Shown: positions 7,678 to 58,544 of the stretch, one piece after another | Layout: the number at the start of each line of letters is the position of its first letter | Numbering within the stretch: the stretch's first letter is position 1 | IMG/VR virus record: IMGVR_UViG_3300036401_000291 | Span: 1-61,046 of that record | Length of the DNA: 61,046 nt | Source: a virus | Strand: one strand, 5' to 3' | The notes under the pieces: model-generated | Told to the model about the DNA's origin: nothing | The model's database searches: none | The model's input: the letters and a program-made list of their open reading frames with translations, nothing else | Translations under genes and position numbers: made by a program

Positions 7678-7872
7678 TTAATGGCCGTCGATCATTTCCT
7701 CGGCGGCATCTATGAGTGCCTCGAAGTCAGCGACGTCCAGGAGCCCGACCTCCCAGGGTCTTACGTGGAACTCTTTCGCGAAGATCGCGAGGTAGCGGTG
7801 CCGGTCGTGCGTGTGCCAGCCGGGGCCGACGGTGGCGTAGGGTCCGGCGCGGCCGCCTCGCCCTTCTCCGCC
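7678..7872 (-). CDS. Tail assembly chaperone, -1 frameshift extension
   Basis: A second reading frame, -1 relative to the chaperone gene, is open from 7872 to the TAA at 7678. It encodes GPYATVGPGWHTHDRHRYLAIF, VRPWEVGLLDVADFEALI and DAAEEMIDGH, a sensible C-terminal half, and it lacks its own start. The slip must occur between the -1-frame stop at 7875-7873 and the end of the first ORF. The stretch gagaagggcgagg is one candidate slip site but is not canonical. This G/T-type fusion is a general feature of siphophage chaperones. Confidence 0.75.
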   Translation of the reverse strand, partial: GGEGRGGRAGPYATVGPGWHTHDRHRYLAIFAKEFHVRPWEVGLLDVADFEALIDAAEEMIDGH

Positions 7873-8084
7873 TCAGCCGCCTCGGCCATCGACGTGAGCA
7901 TCTCCATCAGGTCAAAATCGACCGTGCCGTCCAGCAGGTCTTGCAGCGGCACGTCGCGGCCGTCCCGCCGCCAGATCAGGCAGGCGAGCACGCACATCGC
8001 CCTGGCCGACCCGGCGGCCAGGTCGTCCTGCCACTCGGCGTAGCGCCGTTTGTAGACGTGCTCGACCCACAGCGCCTCGCTCAT
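7761..8084 (-). CDS. Tail assembly chaperone, upstream frame
   Basis: A 107-aa protein from the first ATG (MSEALWVEHVYKRRYAEW), between the tube/minor tail genes and the tape measure, where chaperones belong. Upstream in frame there are 19 further codons reading IKITLGGESFDYDGSK to an in-frame TAG. They look coding and follow a GGAG at about 11 bases, but contain no ATG, GTG or TTG. Translation may begin at the ATC at 8141, or the ATG may be the true start. The last ~30 codons are in the frame replaced after slippage. Confidence 0.75.
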   Translation of the reverse strand: MSEALWVEHVYKRRYAEWQDDLAAGSARAMCVLACLIWRRDGRDVPLQDLLDGTVDFDLMEMLTSMAEAAEAEKGEAAAPDPTPPSAPAGTRTTGTATSRSSRKSST

Positions 8085-8147
8085 GGGCGCCTTGGACCCG
8101 TCATAGTCAAACGATTCGCCGCCCAGGGTGATCTTGATGGCAGTCTC

Positions 8148-8612
8148 CTATCCGGCCGCTTTCGCGGCGACGTCGTGCAGCGCCCGCTCGAGCGCGTCGC
8201 GGACCGGGGTCCCGGCCGCCTCGCAGGGGCCGGTGAACCAGCCGGGCTCCATGCCGTGACCCGGGCCTTCCTGGGTGCGCCACACCTCCCGGTTGCCGAA
8301 CACGGGGTGGGTGAGCAGGCCCGCGTCGAGGCGCCTCAGTTTCCGGTTCCCGCCGCGCGACTGCGCGTACACCGACACCACGGCGTCGGCGGACGCGCCG
8401 CCGCTGCGGGCGATCGTCTTGATGTCCAGGTCCCCGGCGAGGGTCTCCGCGTACCGGTCGGGCAGGTGCGGTCTGAGCCCGGCCCGGATCTGGTCCGGGA
8501 CCTTGCCCACGGCGTCGCGCATCGCCCGGGTGAGTTCCCGGGCCAGGTCGTCCTGACCGGCGCGGCGCAGCCGGACGGCGGCCGCCTCCAGCTCGGACGC
8601 CATGTCGGCCAT
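8148..8612 (-). CDS. HK97 gp10-like / minor tail component
   Basis: A 154-aa protein that begins MADMASELEAAAVRLRRAGQ. The helical N-terminus is followed by basic and loop segments (SRGGNRKLRRLDAGLL, MEPGWFTGP). HK97 gp10-type head-tail joining proteins often have a similar helix and a C-terminal LEXAL motif. Here it lies after the tube protein and before the chaperones, which is slightly displaced from the common order. The call is tentative. Confidence 0.5.
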   Translation of the reverse strand: MADMASELEAAAVRLRRAGQDDLARELTRAMRDAVGKVPDQIRAGLRPHLPDRYAETLAGDLDIKTIARSGGASADAVVSVYAQSRGGNRKLRRLDAGLLTHPVFGNREVWRTQEGPGHGMEPGWFTGPCEAAGTPVRDALERALHDVAAKAAG

Positions 8613-8615
8613 GCG

Positions 8616-16991: not shown

Positions 16992-17441
16992 TCACGTCAG
17001 GGAGATCTGGATGCCTGCTGCGGCGGCCGCGCCGCCGACCACCTGGAACGTGTTGCCCGACCCGACGTTCACCGGCTGGGCGTTGAAGGGTCCCCAGAAT
17101 CCCCGCTGCGCCCCGTTGCCGGTCAGGTCGAACGACACCACCGCGGTCGGTGACCCGGACGACACGAATGACTGGGTGGTGAACGGCACGCCCACCACGA
17201 TCGGGGCGCCCGTCGAGGTGGACTGGCCGAGCGACGTCCACCCGCCCGCCGTGTACCCGGACGTCTGCGTGCCGATGTCCGTCCCGGCCGCGGCACCCGT
17301 GGACAGCGTCGAGTTCAGCCTGAGCTTCATGGCGGTGGTGCCCAGCGGGGTGCCGATCGCGGTGCCGTTCACCCCGGCCGCGCCGGTTGGCGTCAAATAA
17401 TTCAGGAGGGTGGCTATCAGGGTGTTGTCGAGCGCTGCCAT
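16992..17441 (-). CDS. Beta-rich structural protein
   Basis: A 149-aa protein starting MAALDNTLIATLLNYLT, with Gly/Thr/Ser-rich strands including GTPLGTTAMKLRLNSTLSTG and FVSSGSPTAVVSFDLTG. I recall this shape (a short helix, then LRL and STG repeats) from small proteins downstream of capsid genes in Streptomyces phages. Probably a virion component. Confidence 0.5.
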   Translation of the reverse strand: MAALDNTLIATLLNYLTPTGAAGVNGTAIGTPLGTTAMKLRLNSTLSTGAAAGTDIGTQTSGYTAGGWTSLGQSTSTGAPIVVGVPFTTQSFVSSGSPTAVVSFDLTGNGAQRGFWGPFNAQPVNVGSGNTFQVVGGAAAAAGIQISLT

Positions 17442-17570
17442 TTATGTCTCCTGCCCTGCGTCCGCGGACGCTTCTGTCACCGTCTGCCCGCCGGACGTGA
17501 TCACGGTGCCGTCCGGGCCGATGACCCGCCAGCCTTCGTCTTCCGGCTCGAACGCCAGGCCCTCGGTCAC
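17442..17570 (-). CDS. Small protein, paralogue of the next gene
   Basis: A 42-aa GTG-start ORF reading GWRVIGPDGTVITSGGQTV in the middle. This clearly resembles GWRVLDPDGHLVSAGGKTI in the gene just upstream on the same strand, so it is probably a tandem duplicate. Its start lies directly against the stop of that gene. Function unknown. Confidence 0.55.
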   Translation of the reverse strand: MTEGLAFEPEDEGWRVIGPDGTVITSGGQTVTEASADAGQET

Positions 17571-17771
17571 CTAGCTCACCTGCCGCAGCAGCGGAACCCG
17601 GTTGCCGTCCACGCCGAACTCGTCCGTGAACTCGTGCGTGAATGTGAGCTCCACGCGGATGATCGTCTTGCCGCCCGCGCTGACCAGGTGCCCGTCCGGG
17701 TCGAGGACCCGCCAGCCCATGTCCGGTTCCCACGGCGGCGGCACGATCTCCGCCTTGCCCAGCAGGTGCAT
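17571..17771 (-). CDS. Small conserved protein
   Basis: A 66-aa protein starting MHLLGKAEIVPPPWEPDMGWRV. A strong ribosome site (TTAGGAGG) lies just before the ATG and overlaps the end of the nuclease gene. The central GWRVLDPDGHLVSAGGKTI is shared with the following ORF. A small beta hairpin is likely. Function unknown. Confidence 0.6.
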   Translation of the reverse strand: MHLLGKAEIVPPPWEPDMGWRVLDPDGHLVSAGGKTIIRVELTFTHEFTDEFGVDGNRVPLLRQVS

Positions 17772-17780
17772 GGGTGCCTC

Positions 17781-18149
17781 CTAAATCAGCCATCGGGACG
17801 GCATGGCCGGACGCCAGCATCAGCCCCGCGAAGTCAGTCCCGTCAGGCAGGGTTACGGTCCCGTCCCAGCGGCCCCCGAATTTGTCCCAGGAATGAGAGA
17901 TGACGGTCACCATCGTCCCCGGCGGGCAGATCTGCTCCGCGTACGCCAGGGCCGCCTTCCCCGCATCTGTGGCGAGCTCGGGCGCGTTGATGCCGAACAC
18001 CCGGCAGGACAGCTGCGGCGTGCCGGCGAGGGTGTACGCGGCGGCGCGCTGCGAGAAGCCGAGATCGACGTCAATGTGGGCGGTGACGCTAAATCGCCGT
18101 CGTGCCAGTCCAGCACCTTCGCGAGGTACGGACCGTACGTCTGCGGCAT
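17781..18149 (-). pseudogene. Thermonuclease-like (SNase) gene, apparently frameshifted
   Basis: The start MPQTYGPYLAKVLDWHDGD is in one frame, and the continuation FSVTAHIDVDLGFSQ...CRVFGINAPELATDAGKAALAYAE...WDKFGGRWDGTVTLPDG is in another. Together they form a staphylococcal-nuclease-like domain. One T appears to be missing from the T-run near 18092-18095. The second frame also lacks a stop at the expected end, where a TAG lies in another frame at 17781. It is either a pseudogene or carries sequencing indels. Confidence 0.7.
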
Positions 18150-18166
18150 AGGGCATCACTCTCCCC

Positions 18167-18766
18167 TCAGTGGAAGTAGTAATCCCCGGTGACGTGCGGG
18201 ACGCGGACCCACGTGGCGCCCGCGGCCATCCACCGTTTGACGAGATCCCAGTCGATCGTCGGGATCCCCGGGTGCCACCGCCACGTCGCGACGTCGAGCA
18301 GCTCCCGGCGGTGGATGATCATGGACGTGTCGATGTAGCCCTCGGCGGGCGGGTCGGTGCCGATGATGTACTCGCCGCGGCCGTGGACTTGGGTCTTGCC
18401 GTAGGCGAAATCCGCCCCGGTCTCCTCCAGCGCGGCGACCAGCAGCCGGACGTGGGCGGGCCGCCAGGAATTGTCGTCGTCGAGATAAGCGATGTAGTCG
18501 CCTTTGGCCAGGTCGATGCCGTGGAGCCGGGCGTGATGCCCCCACTGGGCGGCCGGGTCATGCTCGGGGAGTTCCTCGATCCGGACAACAGCACCGGGCA
18601 GCAGCGGGGCAAGCTTCGGCCGCAGCGCCGGATCGGGGCCGTCGGAGACCACGATGTGCTCGATCGCGTCGTAGTCCTGCGCCGCCACCGACGGGATGCA
18701 CCTGCCGAACAGCAGGTCATGACGATCCCATGTCGGCGTGACGACGCTTACGAGCGGGTCAGCCAT
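18167..18766 (-). CDS. Family 2 glycosyltransferase (GT-A)
   Basis: A 199-aa protein from ATG 18766, 19 bases inside the end of the epimerase gene. It opens PLVSVVTPTWDRHDLLFGRCI and has HIVVSDGPDP, then AKGDYIAYLDDDNSWRPAH, carrying the DDD metal/nucleotide-sugar site of GT-A enzymes. It likely transfers a sugar from an NDP-sugar. Co-orientation with an epimerase and two methyltransferases suggests one sugar-modification pathway. Confidence 0.85.
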   Translation of the reverse strand: MADPLVSVVTPTWDRHDLLFGRCIPSVAAQDYDAIEHIVVSDGPDPALRPKLAPLLPGAVVRIEELPEHDPAAQWGHHARLHGIDLAKGDYIAYLDDDNSWRPAHVRLLVAALEETGADFAYGKTQVHGRGEYIIGTDPPAEGYIDTSMIIHRRELLDVATWRWHPGIPTIDWDLVKRWMAAGATWVRVPHVTGDYYFH

Positions 18767-19587
18767 TGCCGGTACCACTCCACTGTCTCGGGGACCAGGT
18801 AGGGCCACGGGTTCCGGCACGCGGGCGCGGTGGCGACCACCTCGGCGTCCTGCGGCTCACCCGGCCGGCCGGGTCCATCGAGCAGCCACCAGGGGGTCCG
18901 CCCCGTCGTCTCGGCGATGTCGCGGGCCACCTGCGCCACCGTGACGGGCTTCCCGCACCCGGCCTCCACGACCTGCCCGTAGGGGCCGCCGATCGCGTCG
19001 GCCAGCGCCACGGCCACGTCCGAGACATGCACCGGGTCGATCAGCTGGCCGCCGCCGCCGCACAGTTCCAGCGGCTCCCCGTTCAGCGCGCGGCACGCGA
19101 ACGTCGGGAAGAACTTGTGCACGCCCGCCGGGCCGTACGGCGGCCCGGGGAGCTGGCCCGAGCCGTACACGTGGTACGCCCGCACGACGGTGATCTTCTC
19201 GCCGAGCCACCGTTCCCGGGCCAGCCCCAGGTCTTCCGCCGCGCCCTTGGTGATGGCGTACGGGTTCGGCTGCCCCTTGTGCCCGGTGCCGATCTGCACC
19301 ACCGGCAGGCCCAGCTTCGCCGCGACGTCGTAGACGTTGAGCGCACCGAGGATGTTGACCTCGACGGCGCGGTGCTCGGAGCCGAACAGTTCCGGGGTGC
19401 CCAGGACCCCGGCCAGGTTGATGATCGCCTCAGCGTGAGACATGCGGCACGCGAACTCGATCCGGTCCGGGTTGAGCACGTCGCCGACCGGCCGGTCGTA
19501 CGCGACGCCCTCATGGCCGCGCGCCTCCAGCGCGGCGTCCATGTGCTGCCCGATAAACCCGGACGACCCGGTGACCAGGACTTTCAC
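18748..19587 (-). CDS. NAD-dependent sugar epimerase/dehydratase (extended SDR)
   Basis: A 279-aa GTG-start protein. TGSSGFIG at residues 6-13 is the dinucleotide-binding GxxGxxG, and NPYAITKG supplies Tyr110 and Lys114 of the YxxxK catalytic pair. HVSDVAVALADAI and a C-terminal substrate domain follow, as in NDP-sugar epimerases and dehydratases. It probably makes an activated sugar for the neighbouring glycosyltransferases. It overlaps the methyltransferase gene by GTGA and the glycosyltransferase by 19 bases. Confidence 0.87.
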   Translation of the reverse strand: MKVLVTGSSGFIGQHMDAALEARGHEGVAYDRPVGDVLNPDRIEFACRMSHAEAIINLAGVLGTPELFGSEHRAVEVNILGALNVYDVAAKLGLPVVQIGTGHKGQPNPYAITKGAAEDLGLARERWLGEKITVVRAYHVYGSGQLPGPPYGPAGVHKFFPTFACRALNGEPLELCGGGGQLIDPVHVSDVAVALADAIGGPYGQVVEAGCGKPVTVAQVARDIAETTGRTPWWLLDGPGRPGEPQDAEVVATAPACRNPWPYLVPETVEWYRQWLTRS

Positions 19588-20114
19588 GCGACCTCCCGGT
19601 AGATGGCCAGCGTGTCGACCAGTTCAGACGGCCCGGCCGGGAACAGCGATTCAAGCGCCCACCGCACACCCGGGCAGCAGCAGTCCTCCCCGAGGTCATG
19701 GCAGGCCAGCACCCCGCCGGAGCCCAGCACCTTGCGGGCCGCCTCCACGTCCGCACGGACCGCCGAGGCAGCGTGGTCGCCGTCGATGAACGCCAGCCCG
19801 AACGGGCCGAGCCCGTCCAGCGCGCCCGGCGAGTGCTCCCGCACGACTGTCACCCTGTCCGCGACGCCGGCCCTGTCCAGGTTCGCCGTCATCGCCCCGT
19901 GCGAGTTCAGCCACGTGTGCGGGTCCACGGCGGTGACGTGCCGCGCCCCGGCGAGGGCCATCACGCACGCTGAGAACCCGAACGCGGACCCGATCTCGAG
20001 GACGTCCTTGCCGGCGGCCAGCGCCGCCAGGGCCTGCGCCTCGTCCGGTGTCAGCGACGTGGAGACCGGCTGGGCGCCCGGTCCGGGGGCCTGGTCGCGC
20101 CACGGCAGGTGCAT
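19584..20114 (-). CDS. Class I SAM methyltransferase (Methyltransf_24-like)
   Basis: A 176-aa protein. VLEIGSAFGFSACVMALAG is the SAM-binding motif I, HVTAVDPHTW is motif II, and FGLAFIDGDHAASAVRADVE matches the O-methyltransferase-like motif with IDGDH. It overlaps the epimerase by four bases, so methylation of a sugar or small molecule is more likely than of DNA. The substrate is unknown. Confidence 0.8.
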   Translation of the reverse strand: MHLPWRDQAPGPGAQPVSTSLTPDEAQALAALAAGKDVLEIGSAFGFSACVMALAGARHVTAVDPHTWLNSHGAMTANLDRAGVADRVTVVREHSPGALDGLGPFGLAFIDGDHAASAVRADVEAARKVLGSGGVLACHDLGEDCCCPGVRWALESLFPAGPSELVDTLAIYREVA

Positions 20115-20142
20115 CCTGCGGGCCTCCTAGTACCGTGAGTGA

Positions 20143-20424
20143 GTGACCGAAGAGGACAAGAAGGCCCTGGCCGAGACGATAGCGGACGAACTGGAAGACT
20201 CCGCGTACGGCATCGCGACCGGGGTCGACCGCGAGCGCACGGCCCTGCTGGTCGCGGACTGTATCGAGCCAGTGCTGTATCAGCAGGGCTGGCTGCCGCC
20301 CGCGACTTACCACCGTCTCGCCGAATGGGCCTTCCGGACCGGGAACCTGCCCGAGCACCACGTCAACCCCGACGTCCTGACCTCGCACCTGTCCGAGCTG
20401 GCGGCCATCCTGCACGACCGCTAG
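20143..20424 (+). CDS. Small acidic plus-strand protein
   Basis: A 93-aa GTG-start protein reading VTEEDKKALAETIADELED, RTALLVADCIEPVLYQQGW and YHRLAEWAFRTGNLPEHHVNPDVL. It is mostly helical and acidic. It is inserted in opposite orientation between two minus-strand sugar genes and fits the space exactly (its stop is adjacent to the next stop). Unknown function. Confidence 0.6.
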   Translation: MTEEDKKALAETIADELEDSAYGIATGVDRERTALLVADCIEPVLYQQGWLPPATYHRLAEWAFRTGNLPEHHVNPDVLTSHLSELAAILHDR

Positions 20425-21060
20425 TCAGGGCTGGTCGCCCCACCATCCGCCGGCCGCCCACTCCTGCAAGTGGTCGGTCGGCCAGATCGGCAGCAGGGAC
20501 AGCACCCGGGGCACCTCGGTCTCCCCGATCCACCGTTCCGCCGCGTACCGGTCCGCACCGCCCGGCGGGGGCAGGCGCCGCAGGAACGCCAGGTCGGCCC
20601 ACCAGAAGTTCCCGGCGAAGAACGGCTTAGGGACCTCGAACCGGTCCGGGGTGATCCAGTGCGGCCCCGCGCAGTCGCAGCCGGTGTCCAGCCCGGTCAC
20701 GCACCGCTCCCACCAGCCCACCACCTGCTCGGTCATCCGCCGCCGCCACAGCACGCTCGACGGCGCCCGGTTGGCCGCGCCCTTGGTGTGCGCGTACAGG
20801 ACTTTCCCGTCGAGGGCGGCGAACTCGTGGAGCCTGGCCAGGGTCACCTGCTCGTACCCGGTCTCGGCGGTCACGGCGATCTGCCAGCCGGGGCCGAGCG
20901 TGGCGATGACGGCCTGGCAGTTCCCCGGGGTGCCGACGATCCCGGCGACCTTATGATCCAGCGCCACGTCCAGGCCGTATTCATCGAGGGCGGACAGGTG
21001 CTCTTCGACCGGGGCCTGCCACGCCCCGTCCGCGTACACGTGATAGAAGTGCGCCAGCAT
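20425..21060 (-). CDS. Glycosyltransferase-like protein
   Basis: A 211-aa protein starting MLAHFYHVYADGAWQ. It contains KVLYAHTKGAANRAPSSVLWRRRMTEQVV, GPHWITPDRFEVPKPFFAGNFWWADLAFLRRLP and RYAAERWIGE. I recall this pattern from uncharacterised glycosyltransferases in bacterial and phage surface-sugar clusters (PFFAGNFWWA being the strongest). ATG overlaps the preceding stop by one base (TGATG). The substrate is unknown. Confidence 0.6.
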   Translation of the reverse strand: MLAHFYHVYADGAWQAPVEEHLSALDEYGLDVALDHKVAGIVGTPGNCQAVIATLGPGWQIAVTAETGYEQVTLARLHEFAALDGKVLYAHTKGAANRAPSSVLWRRRMTEQVVGWWERCVTGLDTGCDCAGPHWITPDRFEVPKPFFAGNFWWADLAFLRRLPPPGGADRYAAERWIGETEVPRVLSLLPIWPTDHLQEWAAGGWWGDQP

Positions 21061-21605
21061 CAGCGGGGCCGCACGTGGTAGGCGCCGCCCGCATACGGAT
21101 CGGCCATCGCCACCGGCTCCAGCGCCTTGACGGCCAGGGCACCCCGGGCGGCGAGGATCAATGCCACCGGATAACTAGCCTGGCTGCCGTTAGGCCTGCC
21201 GAACCCCCGGCCAGCGCGCATCTCGTTGCCCGTGACGCTTAGCAGCGCGATGCCGTCAGATGCCTTGAGGTACCGGCCGCGCCACAAGCTGCTAGCTGCG
21301 GGAACTAGCGCCAGGCCGTCCGGGTGGGCGGTAAACCGGTCTATCCACGGCCCCGGGTTGCTGTAGGGCGGGTTCATCCACACCAGCCCGTCCCACGGCG
21401 CGGTAAGCCCATCCTCAATGACCGTCAGGTAGCGCCGGGCGGGGCAGGTGCGGAACTCAGGCGCGATCGGGGCGCTCACGTCCAGGTCGAACACGAGCCC
21501 GGCCGCGTCAAAGATCCACCGGGGCGTGTACCACTCATCGTTCGTGGCGGCCACGTCCGCCGCAGCGACGGCGAACAGCTGATCCACGATCACTACCCGA
21601 TCCAC
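21060..21605 (-). CDS. Phage DNA N-6-adenine methyltransferase (Dam-like)
   Basis: A 181-aa GTG-start protein. DEWYTPRWIFDAAGLVFDLDVSA starts at residue 23 and WMNPPYSNP at residue 77, supplying the NPPY catalytic motif. This is the short phage DNA_N6_adenine-MT family. The enzyme probably methylates adenine in phage DNA and protects it from restriction. It sits among sugar-modification genes rather than with the other DNA methyltransferases near 50-58 kb. Confidence 0.87.
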   Translation of the reverse strand: MDRVVIVDQLFAVAAADVAATNDEWYTPRWIFDAAGLVFDLDVSAPIAPEFRTCPARRYLTVIEDGLTAPWDGLVWMNPPYSNPGPWIDRFTAHPDGLALVPAASSLWRGRYLKASDGIALLSVTGNEMRAGRGFGRPNGSQASYPVALILAARGALAVKALEPVAMADPYAGGAYHVRPR

Positions 21606-22177
21606 CCAGTCCGGGGTGCCGCCGGGCGGGGCTCAACGACGGCCAGGCCCTCCGCCATCCCGACCCCGTCCCACCCGTCCGGCTTGCGGGCCAGCAGGAA
21701 CACTCCCGGCGAGTTCCAGTCCGGGTCCGGCTCCAGCCGCAGCACCTCCAGGCCGAGCGCCTCCGCGATCCCGTCCATGTGGTCCACGGTAAACCGCCAG
21801 TGGTCCTGCGGATGCGGATGGTACGGGAACCCCGGTGAACGGGTCGTCAGCAGCAGCAGCCCGCCCGGAGCCAGGACCCTGGTCATCCCGGTCATGGCGC
21901 CGCGCCAGTCCTCCGCATGCTCCAGCATTTCCGTGCAGATCACGATGTCGGCGGCGTCGTCGCCGAGCTCGGCCGGGAGCTTCTCCGCCGGGCATACCAC
22001 GTCCACGCCCGGCCCCGGCTGCACGTCGGTGCCGGTGTACGACGCCGGGCCCATCGCCTCGTAGACGCCGCGCACGGACCCGTTGTAGTCGTACGCGCCC
22101 GCCTCGACGACCCGCCGGCCCGCCACGTCCCCCGCGCCGAGCGCGCGGGACGCGAACAGGTACGCCGACGGGTGCAC
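21593..22177 (-). CDS. SAM-dependent methyltransferase (Methyltransf_11-like)
   Basis: A 194-aa GTG-start protein. VVEAGAYDYNGSVRGVYE is motif I, YTGTDVQPGPGVDVV motif II, and ADIVICTEMLEHAEDWRGAMTGMTRVLAPGGLLLLTTRS motifs IV-VI. It belongs to the sugar/small-molecule class of methyltransferases. Position between sugar genes and the adenine methylase (12-base overlap) suggests a part in glycan or nucleotide modification. Substrate unknown. Confidence 0.8.
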   Translation of the reverse strand: MHPSAYLFASRALGAGDVAGRRVVEAGAYDYNGSVRGVYEAMGPASYTGTDVQPGPGVDVVCPAEKLPAELGDDAADIVICTEMLEHAEDWRGAMTGMTRVLAPGGLLLLTTRSPGFPYHPHPQDHWRFTVDHMDGIAEALGLEVLRLEPDPDWNSPGVFLLARKPDGWDGVGMAEGLAVVEPRPAAPRTGWIG

Positions 22178-22178
22178 C

Positions 22179-22463
22179 CTACGGGCCCTGGTGGGGGATG
22201 TTCATGCTGGTCGGCCAGTCATCCGCAGCCTCCGGGGAAGCCAGCGAGAAGCCGCCCAGGCCCGCGCCCTGCGGCGAATCGGCCCACACCGCAGCCCCCG
22301 CACACCACGCATTCCCGGCCGAGGTCGCAGCGGCGACCTCGCCCGGGATCATCTCGTCGTAGGGAGCCCGGATGTCCATGATGGTGGCGGTGTCCACCTC
22401 GGCCAGCCGGATCGACGGGTCTTCCGGCCCGGCGGTCGGCGACATCGGGTTCGGCGTGGTCAT
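22179..22463 (-). CDS. Unknown structural-region protein
   Basis: A 94-aa protein starting MTTPNPMSPTAGPEDPSIRLAEVD, with APYDEMIPGEVAAATSAGNAWCAGAAVWADSPQG. Its ATG overlaps the stop of the gene before it. Pro/Ala-rich and not recognised. It lies with two other short genes in the same operon between sugar-transfer genes. Confidence 0.5.
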   Translation of the reverse strand: MTTPNPMSPTAGPEDPSIRLAEVDTATIMDIRAPYDEMIPGEVAAATSAGNAWCAGAAVWADSPQGAGLGGFSLASPEAADDWPTSMNIPHQGP

Positions 22464-22732
22464 GACCGGTACCCTCCTTGCTGCTCGGGGACCTGCTGCT
22501 GCGTGGAGTCCGCGCCGAGCGAGGACCCGTAGTTGACGCTGACCGGGTTCGGCGGCAGCGGCATCGCATCGCCGATGCTGTCACCCGCCGCCAGGGATTC
22601 CTGGCTGATCTGCACCTCACGTGCCACCGCCGCGGTCACCGCCCCGGCCGGGGTCGCGGAGACCGTGTTCGCGCTACCCGCGTCGTGGTCCGTCCCCGGC
22701 GGCGCCGACATCAGCCCGTCCGGGTCAGCCAT
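22460..22732 (-). CDS. Unknown small protein
   Basis: A 90-aa protein from ATG 22732. It has GTDHDAGSANTVSATPAGAVTAAVAREVQISQESLAAGDSI and a Gln-rich end (STQQQVPEQQGGYRS). It is probably disordered. It overlaps neighbours on both sides (8 and 4 bases), showing operon packing. Function unknown. Confidence 0.5.
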   Translation of the reverse strand: MADPDGLMSAPPGTDHDAGSANTVSATPAGAVTAAVAREVQISQESLAAGDSIGDAMPLPPNPVSVNYGSSLGADSTQQQVPEQQGGYRS

Positions 22733-22934
22733 CGGATGCCTGCGACTTCCCCCGCGCCGCGGCGACCGCCGCCTGCACCTTGGACTTCGGCGGCGGCGCG
22801 TCGTCGGACACCTTGTCGAAGATCCCCGGGAGCGCCCTGACCGCCGGGTCGTCGTCGGCGTACAGGACGCCCTTCTTGACGAAAATCTCACTGCCGGCCA
22901 CGTCGAAGAAGCCGTTCTCACGCGACAGCTGCAT
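22725..22934 (-). CDS. Unknown small protein
   Basis: A 69-aa protein reading MQLSRENGFFDVAGSEIFVKKGVLYADDDPAVRALPG then a Lys/Ala/Pro-rich tail. It starts within the 3' end of the glycosyltransferase gene (17-base overlap). A small beta domain plus basic tail suggests a structural or head-associated protein, but I do not recognise it. Confidence 0.5.
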   Translation of the reverse strand: MQLSRENGFFDVAGSEIFVKKGVLYADDDPAVRALPGIFDKVSDDAPPPKSKVQAAVAAARGKSQASDG

Positions 22935-23916
22935 ATGCCTCTATCCAATCTTGGCCGTGGCCCTGGATCGTCCACTGCGCGGCGAGTTTCTTCCCGGCCG
23001 CGCCCATCTCCGCCCGCATCGCCTCATCGTTCACCAGGGCGCGCAGGTACCGGCCCCACTCGTGATCGTGGCGCACCAGGAACCCGGTCACGCCGTGCTC
23101 CACGTACCAGCCGTAGGCGTCCCCGGCCGAGGCGACCACGGGGATGCCGAGCGCCCCGTATTCCATCGCCTTCAACTGGGACTTTTTCCTGGCGAACTCC
23201 GACGTCGGGTCCAGCGGGGCCAGGCCGATATCGAAGTCGACGCCGCGATAGTAGTCCCACACGTCCGGCGTCCACTGGGTGTGCCGCACCCGGTCTTCCG
23301 GGGCCTTCCACTCATCTATCAGCGAGTAGTTTCCCCCGACGAAATGCATGTCCACCTGCGGGTTCCTGACCAGGAACTTCGAGATCATCGGCGCTGCATA
23401 GCGGAAATCTCGCAGGTGCGACGTGCCGCCCGCCCAGCCGACCGTGACCCGCTCCCGCCGTGGCCGCTCGATTTTCAGCAGGTCCTCATGAACGCAGTTC
23501 GGCAGCACCGCCACGTTCGGGTTGTACTTCTTCACCACGTCGACGAGGGGTTCTGTGCTCACCGTCACCAGGTCGGAGATGCTGAGCAGGTACGCGGCGA
23601 TGTCCCGGCATTCCGGCATCTTGTGCCACAGCGAGCCCTCATGGTCGCTGCTGAACACGTCGTCGTCGATGTCGTAGGCCAGGGCCGTCTTACCCTGCCA
23701 GGACTCCCAGAACGCCATGCCGCGCGGCCCGGTGAGCAGCTGCCCGGCCATCACGTCGATGCCGCCCGGCTCGGTGGTCTCCGGTTCGGGGAGCCACACC
23801 ATGCCCCGGGTGGGGAGCATGACGTAATGACCTAGGCGGCGGAGCTGGGCGAGCGGCTGGTAGCAGCGGTAATAGCCGCACCCGTCATCCCCGACCGGCA
23901 GCCCGAAAACCTTCAC
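22918..23916 (-). CDS. GT4-like glycosyltransferase
   Basis: A 332-aa GTG-start protein with GT-B layout. The N-terminal GYYRCYQPLAQLRRLGHYVM and TALAYDIDDDVFSSD lead to VTVGWAGGTSHLRDF at mid-protein and SQLKAMEYGALGIPVVASAGDAYGWYVEHG. The last is the EX7E-type donor-sugar site of family 4. It probably moves a sugar onto a phage or host surface component. Part of the cargo placed between capsid and tail genes. Confidence 0.85.
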   Translation of the reverse strand: MKVFGLPVGDDGCGYYRCYQPLAQLRRLGHYVMLPTRGMVWLPEPETTEPGGIDVMAGQLLTGPRGMAFWESWQGKTALAYDIDDDVFSSDHEGSLWHKMPECRDIAAYLLSISDLVTVSTEPLVDVVKKYNPNVAVLPNCVHEDLLKIERPRRERVTVGWAGGTSHLRDFRYAAPMISKFLVRNPQVDMHFVGGNYSLIDEWKAPEDRVRHTQWTPDVWDYYRGVDFDIGLAPLDPTSEFARKKSQLKAMEYGALGIPVVASAGDAYGWYVEHGVTGFLVRHDHEWGRYLRALVNDEAMRAEMGAAGKKLAAQWTIQGHGQDWIEAYAAVA

Positions 23917-23942
23917 GAAACTCCCCGGTAGTGTGACCTGCC

Positions 23943-24275
23943 ATGAGCGAACGGTGCGCGGAATGCGACAAGCCGCTCTCCAGCCGGCCAGACAAACGCG
24001 GCACGGACGATCTTGGGCGCCCAGTGCATCTCGGGTGCGTGATGCTTTCGCAGCATCCGCAGGTGGAACTGCTGCGGGAGATCTTCGGCCTCGAACGGCA
24101 CCCCGGCAGCCAGAGGAAGGCAGCCGAGATGACCGGACATCAGATCACGGAATCGCGAACCGAGGACCGCAGGTACCGCTGGCAGTGCTCCTGCGGCATG
24201 GGCGCGACGCTCGTCACCAATCGTGCCCGCCAAACCGATATCAAGCGGCACCAGGCGATGGCCATCTATGACTAG
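23943..24275 (+). CDS. Small plus-strand double zinc-ribbon protein
   Basis: A 110-aa protein starting MSERCAECDKPLSSRPDKRG with HLGC, then RYRWQCSCGMGATLVTNRARQTDIKRHQA. CxxC pairs at the N-terminus and CxC/H at the C-terminus suggest two small zinc sites, the second like a C2H2 finger. It faces the late genes from a 26-base divergent gap. Possibly nucleic-acid binding. Function unknown. Confidence 0.6.
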   Translation: MSERCAECDKPLSSRPDKRGTDDLGRPVHLGCVMLSQHPQVELLREIFGLERHPGSQRKAAEMTGHQITESRTEDRRYRWQCSCGMGATLVTNRARQTDIKRHQAMAIYD

Positions 24276-24286
24276 CCGCACGCCCT

Positions 24287-24946
24287 TTACGTCACCTCGC
24301 CGAGCATCACCGGCTTGACATGCCCGACCCTGACGCCGGTGTGGACGTGCACCGGAACCTCCGCCAGCCGGCACCGCAGGCAGAACGTCAGGTCCTCCGC
24401 CAGCAGCGCCAGCGGCGCCTGCGTCGGCTGCTCCCGGAACCACGGCGCCGCCGCGTCGCCCACCGCCTTCGCCACCCGCTCCAGCGCGTCGCGGTGCATC
24501 AGCAGGAACCCCGTCCCCGTCCCGTCCACCCGCACCAGCCCGGCATCCGGCCACTGGCGCAGCCGGGAGAACCCCACCCGCCCCGACCCGTCCTGCCCGA
24601 ACTCGAACATCGTCGGGTACGGGGTGCCGCCGTCCTTGTCCCGCTGCAGGCAGAACGCCCCCACCACCGGCCGCGATACGGGGTCCGCGACGGCGATCAG
24701 CCGGTCCGCCGCATCCGCCGCGAACACCATGTCCGTGTCCGCCATCACCAGCCACGCCGCGTCGCTCGTGGTCAGGAACTTGTGGACGATCTGGTTCCGG
24801 GCCGTCGCGATGTTCGGGCCGGATTCCCACGCGATCACCCCGGCCAGCGGCGTGGCGGCTTCCATCGCCAGGGCCAGCAGCGACGCGGCGAACTCCGCGC
24901 GCAGCACCCCGCCGTGGCAGTAGCCGAACACGAGATGATCAGGCAC
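24287..24946 (-). CDS. GT-A glycosyltransferase-like protein
   Basis: A 219-aa protein from GTG 24946 ([19 protein letters not shown]). It has [35 protein letters not shown], containing the DTD metal site, and [21 protein letters not shown] and [12 protein letters not shown]. This pattern is recurrent in phage glycosyltransferases. It overlaps the end of the HNH gene by 8 bases, so the HNH inserted at the 5' end of this gene's operon position. Sugar and acceptor unknown. Confidence 0.75.
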
Positions 24947-25619
24947 GAGCCGCCTTCCTGCGGGCCAGCATCTCAGCCATGGCATCCGTGTGATACTCGG
25001 CGACGTACTCCATCAGGTCCGTCACCCGCTGACCGGACGGCTGCATCTTGAACCACAACTCAAGGTTCTCGATGCGGTTGTCGTCTCGGATGCCGTTGCG
25101 GTGATGGACATTCTCGCCAGCCTCAAGCGTTCGCCCGAGGTGCTCTTCCATCACGTGCACGTGCTCTAGTACGCGACGCCCGTTGCCGACGTGAATCCGG
25201 ATGTAGCCGTCCCGGTTAGGGGCGACATCACCCTTGGCCCGCATCGGCTGCCCCGGCCCGACTTCGCCAGTGCGGCGCAGCCGTTCGCGGTGCAGATGAC
25301 AGTACGGGCTGCCGTGATGACCTAGCCGGTCACAGCCGTCTGCGGCGCATGGCGCGGCTGGTGCCCGGCGACGGCCTGACTTGCGGCGTTCCGCTGGCCC
25401 TGGTTCGCCATAAGTCCGGACGCGCCAGCGGTGCATCGCGCAATAGCCCCGTGACTCTTCCGGGTTATCGCAGCCATCCACGGTGCACGACTCCCGGAGC
25501 TTCCAGGCCCGTGCCTCGGTGCTTCCCGTGCGATGCCACCGGGCGTAGTGGCGGCGGCACAAGCCACGCGCCACTACGCCCTGATTGCACCCTTCTACCT
25601 CACATACTCTTCTGTTCAC
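24939..25619 (-). CDS. HNH endonuclease with three Cys/His fingers
   Basis: A 226-aa GTG-start protein. Three tandem finger-like units ([69 protein letters not shown]) precede an HNH core with [24 protein letters not shown] and [12 protein letters not shown]. The fingers likely give DNA specificity. It starts 14 bases after the capsid gene and has lower G+C than its neighbours, suggesting a mobile endonuclease inserted behind the capsid gene. Confidence 0.85.
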
Positions 25620-25632
25620 ACATTGGAGTATA

Positions 25633-27066
25633 TTAGGTCAACAGGGTTCTGAATGCCTGTGCGGTCGAGACACCGGAAGAAACTCGCCAGTACATGAACC
25701 AACCAGATTGCCCGGTCGGTAGGTTTGCACTTGCGCCTGTTCCCGTCACCATGGGCTCATAGATCACAGAGACTCCGACGCGATCGACTATGTAGAATTG
25801 TGAAAAATCGCCGAAGACCATGGGCTTGGCCGTGGTCGTGAGGACCGAGGTCATGCTGCTGGATTCGTAGATGCCCTTCCCCAGCAACTGTTCCGGGGAA
25901 TCCTTCCCCAGGTTGGTCCAGAACGACGAGCCGCCGGCGGTGTCGAGCTGCCGGGTGCGGTTGATCTGGGCGACGTTGCAGACGAACGCCGCGTTGGGGG
26001 AGTTGCGGAACCTCGGCGGCAGGGCCGCGTGGAGGTTGTAGGTGTCGGCGATAACGTACGCGCCGGTGGTCACCGTTGTCTGGGTGACGGTCGCCGCGGT
26101 GACGATCCCCAGCGGCTGCGCCGTGCCGGTCCCGGTGGCGAATGCGGACTCTTCCAGCCGGTCCTTGGCGTCCGCCAAAAGGCGCGGGAGCTGGGACCCG
26201 AAGTCCGTATCGCTGAGGACTTCGAATGAGCCGAACACCCAGGCGGCGGCCTTGACGGGCGTGATGACGATCTGGCCGACGGTCGGGGAGTTGTCGGCCG
26301 ACGCGACGCCTTCAGCGAGCCACGCCGCAGTGACGCCCGCGGAGTTGACGCCCTGCCATGCGTTGCTCGTCGTGGTCTTGACGTTGCTGATCCGGCGGTA
26401 CGGGTTCGCGCTGGCCGCGTTGGTCAGCACGATTGTCGGGTCGAGCACGTACGGCAGCAGGTAGCCGCCGGACGCGACGCCGAGGTTCAGGGCGGCGCGG
26501 GCCGCCATGTCATCCGGGTTGCGGATGTACTGCTCGAACGCGTCGTAATACTCCGGGCTGCCCGTCTCCAGGATGTGCCGGGCGATGTTGTTGCCGGGGA
26601 AGTACCCGCCGTCGTGGACCATCCGGGTGGCCTCTTCGGCAGCGTCGTGCCCGGCCATGCCCCTCTTCGCGCCGATCTCGATGGCGTCGAGGGCACGCTC
26701 GCGGAGCTCGGACCGGGCGATGATGCCCTGCCGCGCGCGGCTCAGCGCCTCCGGGTCGAACGGTTCGGTGCGGTTGCGGACCACCAGGTCGGGGCCGCGG
26801 CCGCCGGTGAACCCGCCGGAGTTCCTGCTGGCACCGTAGGGCTCCTCCCGGTTCGCGGGGTCCTCGGCGGTCCGGGTGATGTTGCGGATCTTCTCCATCC
26901 GCTCGATCAGCGGCTTGGTCTTCGCGTCCAGCTCCTCCCACCGCTGGAGCAGCGAATCCCGCAGGTCCCCGTCGGTCTCCTCGGTGACCGTGTCGTCGTT
27001 CTCCATCCGCTGGAGCTCGTTCTTGATCCTCGCCTGCTCGTCGAGGAGTTCCTGCAAAGCGGCCAT
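25633..27066 (-). CDS. Major capsid protein (HK97 fold)
   Basis: A 477-aa protein. Residues 1-70 form a helical delta/scaffold-like region ([30 protein letters not shown]), as in HK97-type proteins whose N-terminus is removed by the protease. Capsid-core strings follow: [59 protein letters not shown] and [29 protein letters not shown]. It follows the protease and portal in standard order. Confidence 0.92.
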
Positions 27067-29811: not shown

Positions 29812-30318
29812 TCAGATTGCCCACACGGACGGTTGCGCCAGTTCTTCCCAGCGGAGAAAAGCCCAGCAGGCCAGCTCCGCCGCCACCAGCGGAGACTGAT
29901 CCACCGGAACGCGCCGCTCCAGCGCCTGCGCGCCCGCCAGGGGTCTTTGCTGCGCGGCCCGCACCGCCGCGGTCAGCGGCGGCTGGTCCAGGTGCGCCAG
30001 GCGGCCGTCATTCACCGCGTCGAGGAACTCGCCGTGCGCGACCGCGACGTCCGCCGTCGCGGGCTGCGTCACGAACACCCCGGCGTCGGCCAGCGGGCGC
30101 AGCAGCGTCCCCGCCTGCGACCGGGGGTCCACGACAGTGGCCACCGGGTCATGCTTCACGCCGAGCGCGGCCAGGCGGGTCACCGCGTCACGCGGATGGT
30201 CGTACCAGACGAGATCCACGACGATCCGGGAGCCGTCCTTCTCCCGGCCCGCCGCCACGACCGCGCAGCGTTTCCGGTCCTCGCTGATCTCGCACGCGAA
30301 CGCGACCTCGCCGCTCAC
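29812..30318 (-). CDS. Terminase large subunit, nuclease domain (separate gene)
   Basis: A 168-aa protein starting at the GTG that overlaps the ATPase stop (GTGA). It has GEVAFACEISEDRKRCAVV, TVVDPRSQAGTLLRPL with the metal-site Asp64, and HGEFLDAVNDGRLAHLDQPPLTAAV. This is the RNase H-like nuclease end normally fused to the terminase ATPase. Its frame differs from the ATPase by one base. So the terminase works as two chains, or a sequencing indel split it. The first motif has CEIS where homologues usually have VDVS. Confidence 0.82.
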   Translation of the reverse strand: MSGEVAFACEISEDRKRCAVVAAGREKDGSRIVVDLVWYDHPRDAVTRLAALGVKHDPVATVVDPRSQAGTLLRPLADAGVFVTQPATADVAVAHGEFLDAVNDGRLAHLDQPPLTAAVRAAQQRPLAGAQALERRVPVDQSPLVAAELACWAFLRWEELAQPSVWAI

Positions 30319-31250
30319 AGCCGCACGCCCGGGGCCGCGCACGCAGCCCACGTGTCAGCGCGGACCACCTCCCACGCCCCGCCGTCCACCGGGTAATCAC
30401 CCACCGACAGCCGCTCCCGCGCGAACGCCTCCGGGGTCAGCGCCGCCTGCTCCAGCTCGACGTAATCCGTGGTGATCCGCATCCCCAGGCCCGGGTTGGC
30501 CTGCGCCCAGCATCGCTGGTCCGCCGGATCGTAAGCATTCTCATCGACCGACCACTCGAAAAACGCCAGTGACTGGTCGCCGCCGCGCAGGCCCCGGTCG
30601 CGGACCCGGCCCAGCTGCACCGACGCCTGATCCCCGGCTGTGGAGGTGTACCAGACCTGGGGATTCGGCCTGGTGCTCAGCGTCGGCAGCATCGACGCCA
30701 TCGCGTCGTCGCTGATATTGAACGCCTCGTCCAGGATCACCAGGTCCGCCGCGAAACCACGGCCAGCCCCGGACGACCGGGCGATGAACCGCAGCCGCTT
30801 CCCGTTCCGCAGCTCGATCGACTCCGACCCGTGCGACCGGATGACCTTCGCGACCTCACGGCTGAAATCCGGGTTCGCCTCGATCAGGCCCAGGATCCGC
30901 CGGAACCCGTCCGCCGCCGTGTCGAACTTATGCGCCGAATGCAAGATCAGCTCAACGTCATCGAACAGGAACAGCGCCGCCAGTTCCAGCGCCTCCAGTA
31001 CCGCGCCCTTGCCGTTCTGCCTGGCCAGGATCAAGCCGACCTCGAACGCCGCCCACCGGCCGCCGCGCGTCGCCAGGGCCTGCCGCAGCACGTACTGCTG
31101 CCAGTCATCCAGCTTCAGCCCGGCGTGCCGGGCCAGCTCGATCGCGTCCTCACCCTGAGACCAGTCATCAGCAGGCGGGAACGACTCCAGGCGGGGCCGC
31201 TGGTCACCCAGCAGCGGCACGCGCGGCGCGGCGAGCACGGAGGTCGTCAA
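30315..31250 (-). CDS. Terminase large subunit, ATPase domain
   Basis: A 311-aa protein with a TTG start behind GGAGCGG. The Walker A variant LARQNGKG spans residues 75-82 and Walker B LVILDE residues 170-175. LKLDDWQQYVLRQAL and FIARSSGAGRGFAADL are typical of phage TerL. It drives DNA packaging. The protein ends ADTWAACAAPGVRL exactly where the nuclease domain should begin, and the nuclease is encoded next with a GTGA overlap. The gene overlaps the small terminase gene by 47 bases. Confidence 0.9.
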   Translation of the reverse strand: MTTSVLAAPRVPLLGDQRPRLESFPPADDWSQGEDAIELARHAGLKLDDWQQYVLRQALATRGGRWAAFEVGLILARQNGKGAVLEALELAALFLFDDVELILHSAHKFDTAADGFRRILGLIEANPDFSREVAKVIRSHGSESIELRNGKRLRFIARSSGAGRGFAADLVILDEAFNISDDAMASMLPTLSTRPNPQVWYTSTAGDQASVQLGRVRDRGLRGGDQSLAFFEWSVDENAYDPADQRCWAQANPGLGMRITTDYVELEQAALTPEAFARERLSVGDYPVDGGAWEVVRADTWAACAAPGVRL

Positions 31251-50270: not shown

Positions 50271-51320
50271 GTGACAGAACCGAGTACCGATCTCGCGCTT
50301 CCTGAGCCCGAGTCGGTCACCCTCACTCAGGTGCGAACCGATCTCGTGCCGCTAGTTCAGGCTGCGCGGGAACGGATCCGGGAGAGCGGCGATATCGGTG
50401 CTGCACGGGAACTGACGCGGCGGCTGGAGGCGTTCCGCCGCTACCTCACCGACCGCCAGGGACGGGACTTGGTAGCGGGCGAGGCGCGGCGTACCGAGTT
50501 GCTCATCGGCCAGCTGCTCGGACCGGGCGAGCGCGGAAGCTACGGGCGCGGACGACCGATAGATTCCCAAGCGGGGGAATCTATCCCGAAGAACGATCGG
50601 CACCGGTTCCGGCTGCTTGCCGAACACGCCGACGCGGTAGAAGAGGCGCTGAACGCCGGCGTCGTCTCTCGTAAGGCCCTGCTGGAGCGGATCCAGTACA
50701 AGCCCGGCGTACCCGTCCCGCTCGCCGAAGGGCTCTGCTCGACGCTGGTCGCCGACCCGCCCTGGCGGTACGGCAACACCGCCACCCGGGCCAACGCCCA
50801 CGGCCACTACGACGGAACGCTGAATATCGCCCAGCTCTGCGGCGAGGAACTCATGCCCGACGGCACGAACCTCGTCAAGGAAGTGGTGCGCCCGAAATCC
50901 GCGTCCCCAGGTCACCTCTACCTGTGGACAACCGCCGGCCACCTGCCCGACGCATTCAGCGTCATGGCCGCCTGGGGCTACACCTACAAGACCTACATCG
51001 TCTGGGTGAAGAAGAAGCCCGACGGCCGCCCGCAGATGGGCATGGGCAACTACTTCCGCGTCTCCACCGAGCTCATCCTGTTCGGCGTCCGCGGCGACCT
51101 GCGCACCAGGGACCGCGGAATCCTCAACTGGCTCGAGGCACCGCGCGGCCAGCACTCAGCCAAGCCGCAGGTCTTCCACGACCTAGTGATGAAGGCCAGT
51201 CCCGGCCCCTACCTCGAGTTGTTCGCGCGCTGCGGCGCGGGCGCGGGCACGCAGCTGCCCGGTGTCTGCCAGTGCTCGCGATGCCGCCTCGGCTGGGAAG
51301 TCTGGGGGAACCAGACGTGA
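50271..51320 (+). CDS. MT-A70-type DNA adenine methyltransferase with ParB-like N-terminus
   Basis: A 349-aa protein from GTG 50271; ATG 50220 in frame would read through the tRNA-like element. Residues ~15-130 are helical with HTH-like text (LVAGEARRTELLIGQLLGPG, VVSRKALLERIQYKP). The catalytic ADPPWRY is at residue ~161, then HLYLWTTAGHLPDAFSVMAAW, and QHSAKPQVFHDLVMKASPGPYLELFAR. The DPPW motif is that of N6-adenine methylases of the MT-A70 class. Probable DNA protection. It overlaps the next gene by GTGA. Confidence 0.85.
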   Translation: MTEPSTDLALPEPESVTLTQVRTDLVPLVQAARERIRESGDIGAARELTRRLEAFRRYLTDRQGRDLVAGEARRTELLIGQLLGPGERGSYGRGRPIDSQAGESIPKNDRHRFRLLAEHADAVEEALNAGVVSRKALLERIQYKPGVPVPLAEGLCSTLVADPPWRYGNTATRANAHGHYDGTLNIAQLCGEELMPDGTNLVKEVVRPKSASPGHLYLWTTAGHLPDAFSVMAAWGYTYKTYIVWVKKKPDGRPQMGMGNYFRVSTELILFGVRGDLRTRDRGILNWLEAPRGQHSAKPQVFHDLVMKASPGPYLELFARCGAGAGTQLPGVCQCSRCRLGWEVWGNQT

Positions 51321-55109: not shown

Positions 55110-55590
55110 TGTCGTGCTCCGCGGTGACGCCCGCCGCCTGCCCCTGCCGCCGCACCGCTACAGGTCGATCCTGGCGCGGCTGCTCATCACCGGCTCTGGG
55201 TGCTGGGAATGGACCGGAGCCCGGGACCCTCGCGGTTACGGACGCGTTGGCTATGGCCCCCGGAATGCTGGCACCGGCCTCGTGCACCGCATCGTCTATC
55301 AGCAGGTCAATGGATTCATTGAGGATGACCTCGAGCTAGACCATCTGTGCAGGAACACGGCGTGTGCAAACCCGGCCCACCTTGAGCCCGTGACACATCA
55401 GGAGAACGTGCGGCGCGGCGAAGGGCCGGCACTGCTCGTCGCAAGGAACGCTGCCGTTGACCGCTGCCCCCAAGATCATCTCTACGACGAGGAGAACACC
55501 TACATCCCGCCCGGAAAGCGCGGCCGTGAGTGCCGTATCTGCCGCAATGAGGCGGCTCGTAAGTGGCGCGAAGCGAGGCGGCAGGGATGA
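55102..55590 (+). CDS. HNH endonuclease with a captured methyltransferase N-terminus
   Basis: A 162-aa GTG-start protein. The first 16 residues, VTAVVLRGDARRLPLP, match MTAIVIRGDAAHLPLP at the start of the downstream adenine/cytosine-N4 methylase. The HNH domain begins right after: GCWEWTGARDPRGYGRVGYG, HRIVYQQVNGF, ELDHLCRNTACANPAHLEPV with the D80-H81/N90/H93 core, and C-terminal zinc-like CRICRNEA. So a homing endonuclease took over the expression signals and first codons of a methylase copy. It is coupled to the intact methylase by ATGA. Confidence 0.88.
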   Translation: MTAVVLRGDARRLPLPPHRYRSILARLLITGSGCWEWTGARDPRGYGRVGYGPRNAGTGLVHRIVYQQVNGFIEDDLELDHLCRNTACANPAHLEPVTHQENVRRGEGPALLVARNAAVDRCPQDHLYDEENTYIPPGKRGRECRICRNEAARKWREARRQG

Positions 55591-57956: not shown

Positions 57957-57972
57957 CCGCTAGCCTTGCCTC

Positions 57973-58233
57973 ATGCGTCCCGCCGACCTCGCCGAGGCTG
58001 CCCGCGTCCGCGCTGACCTGAAGTCGGGGCGGGCCCGCCAGGCCCGTATCGACGCGGGGGTGTCCGGTGCGGAGGTGGCGCGGGAGCTGCAGCGCCGCGG
58101 TCACGGCGTCACTCCGCAGGCGGTGTTCTACTGGGAGACGCGCGTGAACACGCCGACGGTGGAGCATGCCCTGGCGTACGGCCGGGTGCTGGCCGCGCTG
58201 GCGAAGCGGGCGGCCGTAGAGGAGGCATCATGA
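57973..58233 (+). CDS. HTH-domain protein
   Basis: An 86-aa protein. RARQARIDAGVSGAEVAREL, QRRGHGVTPQAVFYWETRVN and TPTVEHALAYGRVLAALAKR form an XRE-like helix-turn-helix with a rearranged middle. Its ATG follows the methylase stop by 16 bases. It probably regulates phage genes. ATGA-coupled to the next gene. Confidence 0.75.
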   Translation: MRPADLAEAARVRADLKSGRARQARIDAGVSGAEVARELQRRGHGVTPQAVFYWETRVNTPTVEHALAYGRVLAALAKRAAVEEAS

Positions 58234-58466: not shown

Positions 58467-58476
58467 ACGCAAAACA

Positions 58477-58510
58477 CGCCCGGCCTGCCCCCGAGAGGGC
58501 GAGCCGGGCG
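58477..58510. terminator. Convergent terminator between early and lysis genes
   Basis: CGCCCGGC (58477-58484) and GCCGGGCG (58503-58510) form an 8-bp stem. An inner GCCC/GGGC stem gives a compound hairpin. It separates the plus-strand early operon from the minus-strand endolysin and can serve both. Confidence 0.6.
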
Positions 58511-58544
58511 GTTGCGCGTGCTGAACGCGGGTCTCAGCTTGCAG

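What the first reader, a model, noticed from the sequence alone, without database searches (positions are those of the whole stretch)
18167..24946. Sugar-modification island inside the structural operon
Four glycosyltransferase-type genes, an epimerase, two SAM methyltransferases and a DNA adenine methylase lie between capsid and fibre genes on the same transcript. A fifth glycosyltransferase lies among the tail genes at 9054. Timing and position point to glycosylated capsid, fibre or DNA.
Basis: partly seen in the sequence, partly recalled or inferred. Interest (0 to 1): 0.6.

Follow-up and report, generated by a model that had tools for sequence, protein, structure and literature searches.

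The report
Phage island for sugar-coating virions
An uncultured phage, probably of an actinobacterium, carries a set of sugar-transferring and sugar-modifying enzymes beside its shell and tail genes, most likely to coat its own particles with modified sugars, a known phage habit seen here in an unusually modular form.

Summary
Between the major capsid gene (25633-27066, -) and unassigned structural genes lie four glycosyltransferases (GTs; one by fold only), an NAD-dependent sugar epimerase, two SAM methyltransferases and a Dam-type adenine methylase. A fifth GT (9054-10268) adjoins the major tail gene. Two qualifications: "same transcript" is only inferred, since a conserved gene (20143-20424, +) lies antisense inside the island; and the Dam gene occurs in no relative, so it is probably an unrelated passenger.

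Best reading: the phage glycosylates its own virion proteins, the capsid with GT 22918-23916 and the tail tube with GT 9054-10268, while methyltransferases and epimerase tailor the sugar. That capsid GT follows the capsid gene in all 14 capsid-matched loci (11 lineages) with at least 2 kb downstream. One lineage fuses it to the methyltransferase. The tail GT adjoins the major tail gene in all eight relatives that carry it. The methyltransferase-epimerase-GT cassette also occurs in the tail slot of two relatives. Nothing needed for DNA-base glycosylation was found.

Virion glycosylation by phage GTs is established (mycobacteriophages Che8, Corndog, Myrna). No island protein is detectably homologous to the three Che8 GTs. 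New variant of a known kind; acceptors and sugars untested.

The parts
25633..27066 (-). Major capsid protein (HK97-type), proposed acceptor
   Evidence: PHROG 10 major head protein 1.6e-42
24939..25619 (-). Free-standing HNH endonuclease between capsid gene and island
   Evidence: Pfam HNH_3 5e-11
24287..24946 (-). GT-A glycosyltransferase g35 (alternative ATG start at 24985)
   Evidence: PHROG 34859 1e-20; invariant D70xD72, E184D185, H209; AF2 fold nearest LH3, GlfT2, COLGALT1, GalNAc-T
22918..23916 (-). GT-B glycosyltransferase g33, conserved capsid-slot enzyme
   Evidence: Pfam Glyco_trans_1_4 6e-10; downstream of the capsid gene in 14/14 loci
22725..22934 (-). Small conserved ORF g32, unknown function
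   Evidence: 51-61% in relatives, syntenic
22460..22732 (-). Small conserved ORF g31, unknown function
   Evidence: 55-73% in relatives, syntenic
22179..22463 (-). Small conserved ORF g30, unknown function
   Evidence: 44-66% in relatives, syntenic
21593..22177 (-). SAM methyltransferase g29, core partner of g33
   Evidence: Pfam Methyltransf_11 2e-9; fused to the g33-type GT in L017/L018/L020
21060..21605 (-). Dam-type DNA adenine methylase g28, probably an unrelated passenger
   Evidence: Pfam Dam 5e-12; no homologue in any related locus
20425..21060 (-). GT-A-fold protein g27, family without Pfam entry
   Evidence: No Pfam or PHROG hit; AF2 pLDDT 90; Foldseek GtrB, IspD, GlmU, dolichyl-P-mannose synthase
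20143..20424 (+). Antisense conserved ORF g26 inside the island
   Evidence: 71% identity at the same place in G018, dN/dS 0.43
19584..20114 (-). SAM methyltransferase g25 (Methyltransf_24)
   Evidence: Pfam 8e-20; PDB hits are O-methyltransferases
18748..19587 (-). NAD-dependent nucleotide-sugar epimerase/dehydratase g24
   Evidence: Pfam Epimerase 8.5e-27; PDB MoeE5, UDP-glucose 4-epimerase
18167..18820 (-). GT2 glycosyltransferase g23
   Evidence: Pfam Glycos_transf_2 2e-17; DDD motif in translation
9054..10268 (-). Tail-slot glycosyltransferase g11 (alternative GTG start at 10427)
   Evidence: Pfam Glyco_trans_1_2 9e-14; next to the major tail gene in all eight relatives that have it
8616..9038 (-). 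Major tail protein, proposed acceptor of g11
   Evidence: PHROG 10528 major tail protein 1.5e-11

Best explanation
The island and the outlying GT form a two-site virion-glycosylation system. The conserved GT g33 (22918-23916) acts in the capsid slot on the major capsid protein or on a protein bound to it, and GT g11 (9054-10268) acts on the major tail (tube) protein. g35, g27 and g23 add or extend sugars, or offer alternative acceptor specificities. Methyltransferases g29 and g25 cap or tailor the sugar, and epimerase g24 makes or alters the nucleotide-sugar donor from host pools. The outer part of the set is exchanged between phages, so the particle surface differs among close relatives. Shown here: enzyme families, gene order, conservation, GT-methyltransferase fusion, and movement of the cassette. 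Inferred: enzymatic activity, acceptors, sugar identity, and the benefit (particle protection, adsorption, or surface variation).
For: (1) Capsid-matched loci, found without reference to GTs: 14 of 14 with at least 2 kb downstream carry a g33-type GT 0.3-2.1 kb after the capsid gene, down to 52% capsid identity; 11 are non-redundant. (2) Cultured phages with a roughly 33% identical capsid protein (RavenCo17, prophiGD02-2, REQ1, Brujita) show no annotated GT there. (3) In L017/L018/L020 the g29-type methyltransferase and g33-type GT are one 524-aa ORF just after the capsid gene. (4) g11 adjoins the major tail gene in all eight relatives that have it. (5) The g25-g24-g23 cassette lies in the capsid slot in the window but directly before the tail gene pair that holds the tail GT in L140 and L141, with the epimerase at 90-91% against 68-71% for the tail protein. 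(6) Relatives fill the slot with other sugar enzymes: DegT sugar aminotransferase, GNAT and GT2 in G018; aminotransferase, GNAT, methyltransferase and GT in G011; a methyltransferase matching PDB macrolide-sugar O-methyltransferase entries (3ssm, 8ia9) in G003. (7) No membrane-spanning segment in island proteins (maximum 19-residue hydropathy 1.65), which argues against a surface-polysaccharide machine. (8) Established precedent, capsid and tail-tube glycosylation by phage GTs: PMC12363180 and PMC11600133, both citing Freeman 2023.
Against: No biochemical or virion data exist. The g33-type GT was not seen in L136 (capsid protein 61%) within about 2.5 kb, although a g35-type GT is there. The tail GT is absent from some relatives that carry the capsid-slot GT (G009, G016, G022). 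Position next to a structural gene does not prove that its product is the acceptor. g27 lacks a DxD motif among its conserved residues.
Confidence: 0.7

Rival explanations
1. The enzymes glycosylate or hypermodify the phage DNA, with Dam and the GTs protecting the genome from restriction.
For: A Dam-type methylase lies inside the island, and further DNA methylases lie elsewhere in the contig: MT-A70 at 50346-51320 and N6/N4 methylase at 55587-57152.
Against: No TET/JBP and no thymidylate-synthase-family enzyme to create a sugar-accepting base. Dam is in no relative while the GTs are. The sugar genes sit in the late structural block, not with the DNA-metabolism genes.
Confidence: 0.06
2. The enzymes modify the host cell-surface glycan during infection (superinfection exclusion or receptor masking).
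For: Phage-borne GTs of this kind exist (discussed in PMC10955285); two large relatives encode an integrase and are probably temperate.
Against: Late-block position; fixed adjacency to capsid and tail genes; no membrane anchor, flippase-like or polyprenyl-linked enzyme in the island; no tyrosine integrase found in the window itself.
Confidence: 0.12
3. The acceptors are accessory surface proteins encoded between the island and the tail genes (12198-17771: g15-g22), such as head appendages or fibres, not the capsid or tail tube.
For: These Ser/Thr-rich proteins (15-26% S+T) lie directly downstream of the island and vary between relatives; a collagen-like ORF lies inside the G003 island; the g35 model resembles protein- and collagen-modifying GTs.
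Against: The g33-type GT follows the capsid gene across relatives although the accessory set changes; fold resemblance of GT-A enzymes does not fix the acceptor.
Confidence: 0.3

Closest known systems
Mycobacteriophage virion glycosylation (Che8, Corndog, Myrna; Freeman et al. 2023, as summarised in PMC12363180)
   Same: Phage-encoded GTs that glycosylate capsid and tail-tube proteins. Che8 gp108-gp110 are three adjacent GT-annotated genes, gp108 being a GT2 fused to a Methyltransf_24 domain, followed two genes on by an HNH gene.
   Different: No island protein is detectably homologous to Che8 gp108, gp109 or gp110. The Che8 genes lie at the right genome end, whereas here they lie in the structural block at two sites. 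An epimerase is added. Corndog and Myrna GTs could not be compared (Corndog records not held, Myrna not tried).
Cluster O mycobacteriophages (PMC11600133)
   Same: Three tandem GTs downstream of an O-methyltransferase gene, reported to act on capsid and tail-tube proteins.
   Different: Sequences not compared here; one tandem set described rather than a capsid slot and a tail slot.
Streptomyces phages Zuko and KimJongPhill (Zukovirus), gp4-gp6 of KimJongPhill
   Same: gp6 is a homologue of g33 (32-33% identity; phmmer 3e-47); gp4 (annotated UDP-glucose dehydrogenase) and gp5 (annotated methyltransferase) adjoin it.
   Different: Placed before the terminase rather than after the capsid gene; function untested there too.
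Microbacterium phage Magritte gp5-gp8
   Same: gp5, an epimerase-family relative of g24 (36.5%), with two annotated GTs and an HNH gene near the terminase.
   Different: Different gene order, no methyltransferase annotated, and a 133-kb phage.

Membership tests
Phage virion glycosylation (Che8/Corndog type) | Sugar covalently attached to capsid and/or tail-tube protein | not testable with these tools
   Needs mass spectrometry of virions or co-expressed proteins
Phage virion glycosylation (Che8/Corndog type) | Phage-encoded GTs, clustered, with an accompanying methyltransferase | tested here: met
   GTs and SAM methyltransferases in one cluster; methyltransferase-GT fusion in a relative and in Che8 gp108
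Phage virion glycosylation (Che8/Corndog type) | Sequence homology of the GTs to the proven capsid GT Che8 gp110 | tested here: not met
   phmmer and hhalign find no similarity; Corndog records not held
Glycosylated hypermodified phage DNA (T4-like or TET-linked) | Enzyme making a sugar-accepting base (hydroxymethylase or TET) | tested here: not met
   PF12851 and PF00303 absent from the contig
Host-surface glycan conversion (Gtr-type) | Membrane-bound flippase and polyprenyl-phosphate GT | tested here: not met
   No transmembrane-grade segment in island proteins; no such Pfam family
GT-A glycosyltransferase (g35) | DxD motif, acidic base pair and metal-binding His on a GT-A fold | tested here: met
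GT-A glycosyltransferase (g27) | GT-A fold with DxD | tested here: inconclusive
   Fold met; DxD not among invariant residues

The most novel reading that the evidence does not exclude
A two-slot, modular virion-glycan system: one fixed GT per structural acceptor (g33 for the capsid, g11 for the tail tube) and a mobile set of sugar-tailoring genes that moves between slots and phages, so that closely related phages present different sugar coats, comparable to serotype variation.
Probability: 0.35. Interest if true: 0.65.

Novelty: new variant of a known kind. Interest (0 to 1): 0.48.

Why it matters
Capsid and tail glycosylation has been shown in only a few cultured mycobacteriophages. This lineage of uncultured phages ties one GT family to the capsid gene and another to the tail gene over large evolutionary distances, which makes acceptor specificity directly testable by co-expressing each GT with its neighbour. 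The swapping of sugar-tailoring genes suggests that the particle's sugar coat is under diversifying pressure in the environment, where mammalian antibodies are unlikely to be the cause; that would bear on why phages glycosylate virions at all.

Tried and rejected
DNA glycosylation: searched for TET/JBP and thymidylate-synthase homologues, none. Homology to the proven Che8 GTs: none. Corndog records NC_004685 and AY129335 are not held, and the Freeman 2023 paper is not held; its content is taken from papers citing it. DNA-level relatives in cultured phages: none. Cultured relatives of g11 and g32: none. GTDB capsid relatives are only 31-39% identical and gave no host; one actinomycete MAG (L155) has a g32-like and a g35-like gene between capsid and adaptor-position genes. 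Collagen-like acceptors: found in relatives L005 and L130 but not in the window. N-glycosylation sequons and Ser/Thr content do not single out an acceptor.

Full report
WHAT WAS CHECKED. The window is a whole 61,046-bp IMG/VR virus record, 70% G+C, with no near DNA relative of the island region among 50,697 phage records. Its capsid protein resembles those of Gordonia, Mycobacterium and Rhodococcus phages at 32-34%, so an actinobacterial host is likely but not shown. A codon-based gene model and family searches give this order in the late block on the minus strand: terminase in two pieces, portal, protease, capsid protein, HNH, GT g35, GT g33, three small ORFs, methyltransferase g29, Dam g28, GT-fold g27, methyltransferase g25, epimerase g24, GT g23, a frameshifted nuclease-like ORF, unassigned proteins g22-g15, head-tail adaptor g14, a g12 protein at the tail-terminator position, GT g11, major tail protein g10, tape measure.

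THE WEAKER GENE CALLS. g35 and g27 have no Pfam match. g35 has a PHROG glycosyltransferase match, invariant DxD, ED and H, and an AlphaFold2 model (pLDDT 85 for the best of five models, two of which were acceptable) whose nearest solved folds are LH3, GlfT2, COLGALT1 and polypeptide GalNAc-transferases. g27 folds confidently (pLDDT 90) as a GT-A-type protein (GtrB, IspD, GlmU, DPM synthase) but has no invariant DxD, so its catalytic role is inferred.

THE CORE IS TIED TO THE CAPSID GENE. Relatives were collected with the capsid protein alone. Every locus with at least 2 kb beyond the capsid gene, 14 of 14 and 11 after removing duplicates, has a g33-type GT 0.3-2.1 kb downstream, down to capsid identities of 52%. 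Methyltransferase g29 is nearby in most, and in L017/L018/L020 it is fused to the GT in one 524-aa protein. In the compact relative G013 the slot is little more than the GT, a g32-like ORF and the methyltransferase. One exception: L136, where about 2.5 kb show a g35-type but no g33-type GT. Cultured phages with distant versions of this capsid protein have no annotated GT there.

THE TAIL GT IS TIED TO THE TAIL GENE. g11 homologues lie immediately before a g10-type major tail gene in G004, G011, G013, G018, G019, G020, L140 and L141 (also for L015, which lies in G013). They are absent from G009, G016 and G022, which still have the capsid-slot GT. No cultured phage in the collection has a detectable g11.

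THE OUTER GENES ARE EXCHANGED. The methyltransferase-epimerase-GT cassette g25-g24-g23 lies in the capsid slot in the window. In L140 and L141 it lies between a terminator-like gene and the tail gene pair that holds g11. In G019 it lies between a terminator-like gene (by eye the same type as in L140) and the g21-type and accessory structural genes. The epimerase is 90-91% identical to L140/L141 (dS about 0.24), whereas the tail protein is 68-71%, which points to recent exchange. Other relatives carry different sugar genes in the slot: a DegT aminotransferase, GNAT and GT2 in G018; a similar set in G011; and in G003 a methyltransferase matching PDB macrolide-sugar O-methyltransferase entries (3ssm, 8ia9; identification of 3ssm as MycE is from memory). 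The Dam gene is in none of them, so it is probably a separate passenger.

MECHANISM. The economical reading is protein glycosylation of the virion with tailored sugars. The steps from donor sugar (epimerase) through transfer (GTs) to capping (methyltransferases) are inferred from families. The choice of acceptors (capsid for g33, tail tube for g11) is inferred from position. Accessory structural proteins remain a serious alternative acceptor. DNA glycosylation has no precursor enzyme in the contig. A host-surface role lacks the membrane components. The record may be incomplete, so absences are tentative.

AGAINST WHAT IS KNOWN. Phage GTs that glycosylate capsid and tail-tube proteins are established for Che8, Corndog and Myrna (PMC12363180), and cluster O phages have three GTs with an O-methyltransferase (PMC11600133). 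Che8 gp108 is itself a GT2 fused to a Methyltransf_24 domain. None of the island proteins is detectably homologous to Che8 gp108-gp110, so this is functional resemblance, not family membership. The new element is the pairing of separate GT families with capsid and tail genes and the exchange of tailoring genes between the two sites.

LIMITS. No expression, virion or sugar data; hosts unknown; all close relatives are metagenomic contigs, several of them fragments. Co-transcription was not shown, and one conserved antisense ORF (20143-20424) argues for caution.

Noticed in passing
L006 11355-11625; L007 6983-7247; L008 8010-8279 and 8359-8626; L021 10621-10910; L023 1801-2066 and 2835-3098: Capsid genes of relatives are interrupted at about residues 205-212, 431 and 457 by related 250-290 bp group I introns (one scores 41.6 bits, E 7e-8, against RF00028, below the 50-bit gathering cut-off). 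The window's capsid gene has none, but a free-standing HNH gene lies 14 bp downstream.
   Followed up: partly
window 29812-31250: Large terminase split into ATPase (30315-31250) and nuclease (29812-30318) ORFs; also split in relatives, with a DNA-methylase-like ORF between the halves in L007 and L009. The ATPase halves are only about 30% identical to those of L004/L006/L021 while the nuclease halves are 72-74%.
   Followed up: partly
window 17800-18159: Thermonuclease-like ORF that appears frameshifted near 18.1 kb; L007 (8049-8408) has an intact-looking homologue. Assembly error or pseudogene not resolved.
   Followed up: no
window 20143-20424 (+): Conserved antisense gene inside a minus-strand late block, 71% identical at the same place in G018.
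   Followed up: partly
L140 6657-8583; L141 2777-4701; G004 7840-10048: Two g10-type major tail protein genes flank the tail GT in these relatives; the window has one.
   Followed up: no
window 57315-59426: Relatives G004 and G018 encode a tyrosine integrase near the lysin gene; the window has none detectable.
   Followed up: partly
window 9497-9668 approximately (within 9054-10268): The window's tail GT has about 57 extra residues (201-257, Ser/Glu-rich) that most homologues lack.
   Followed up: no
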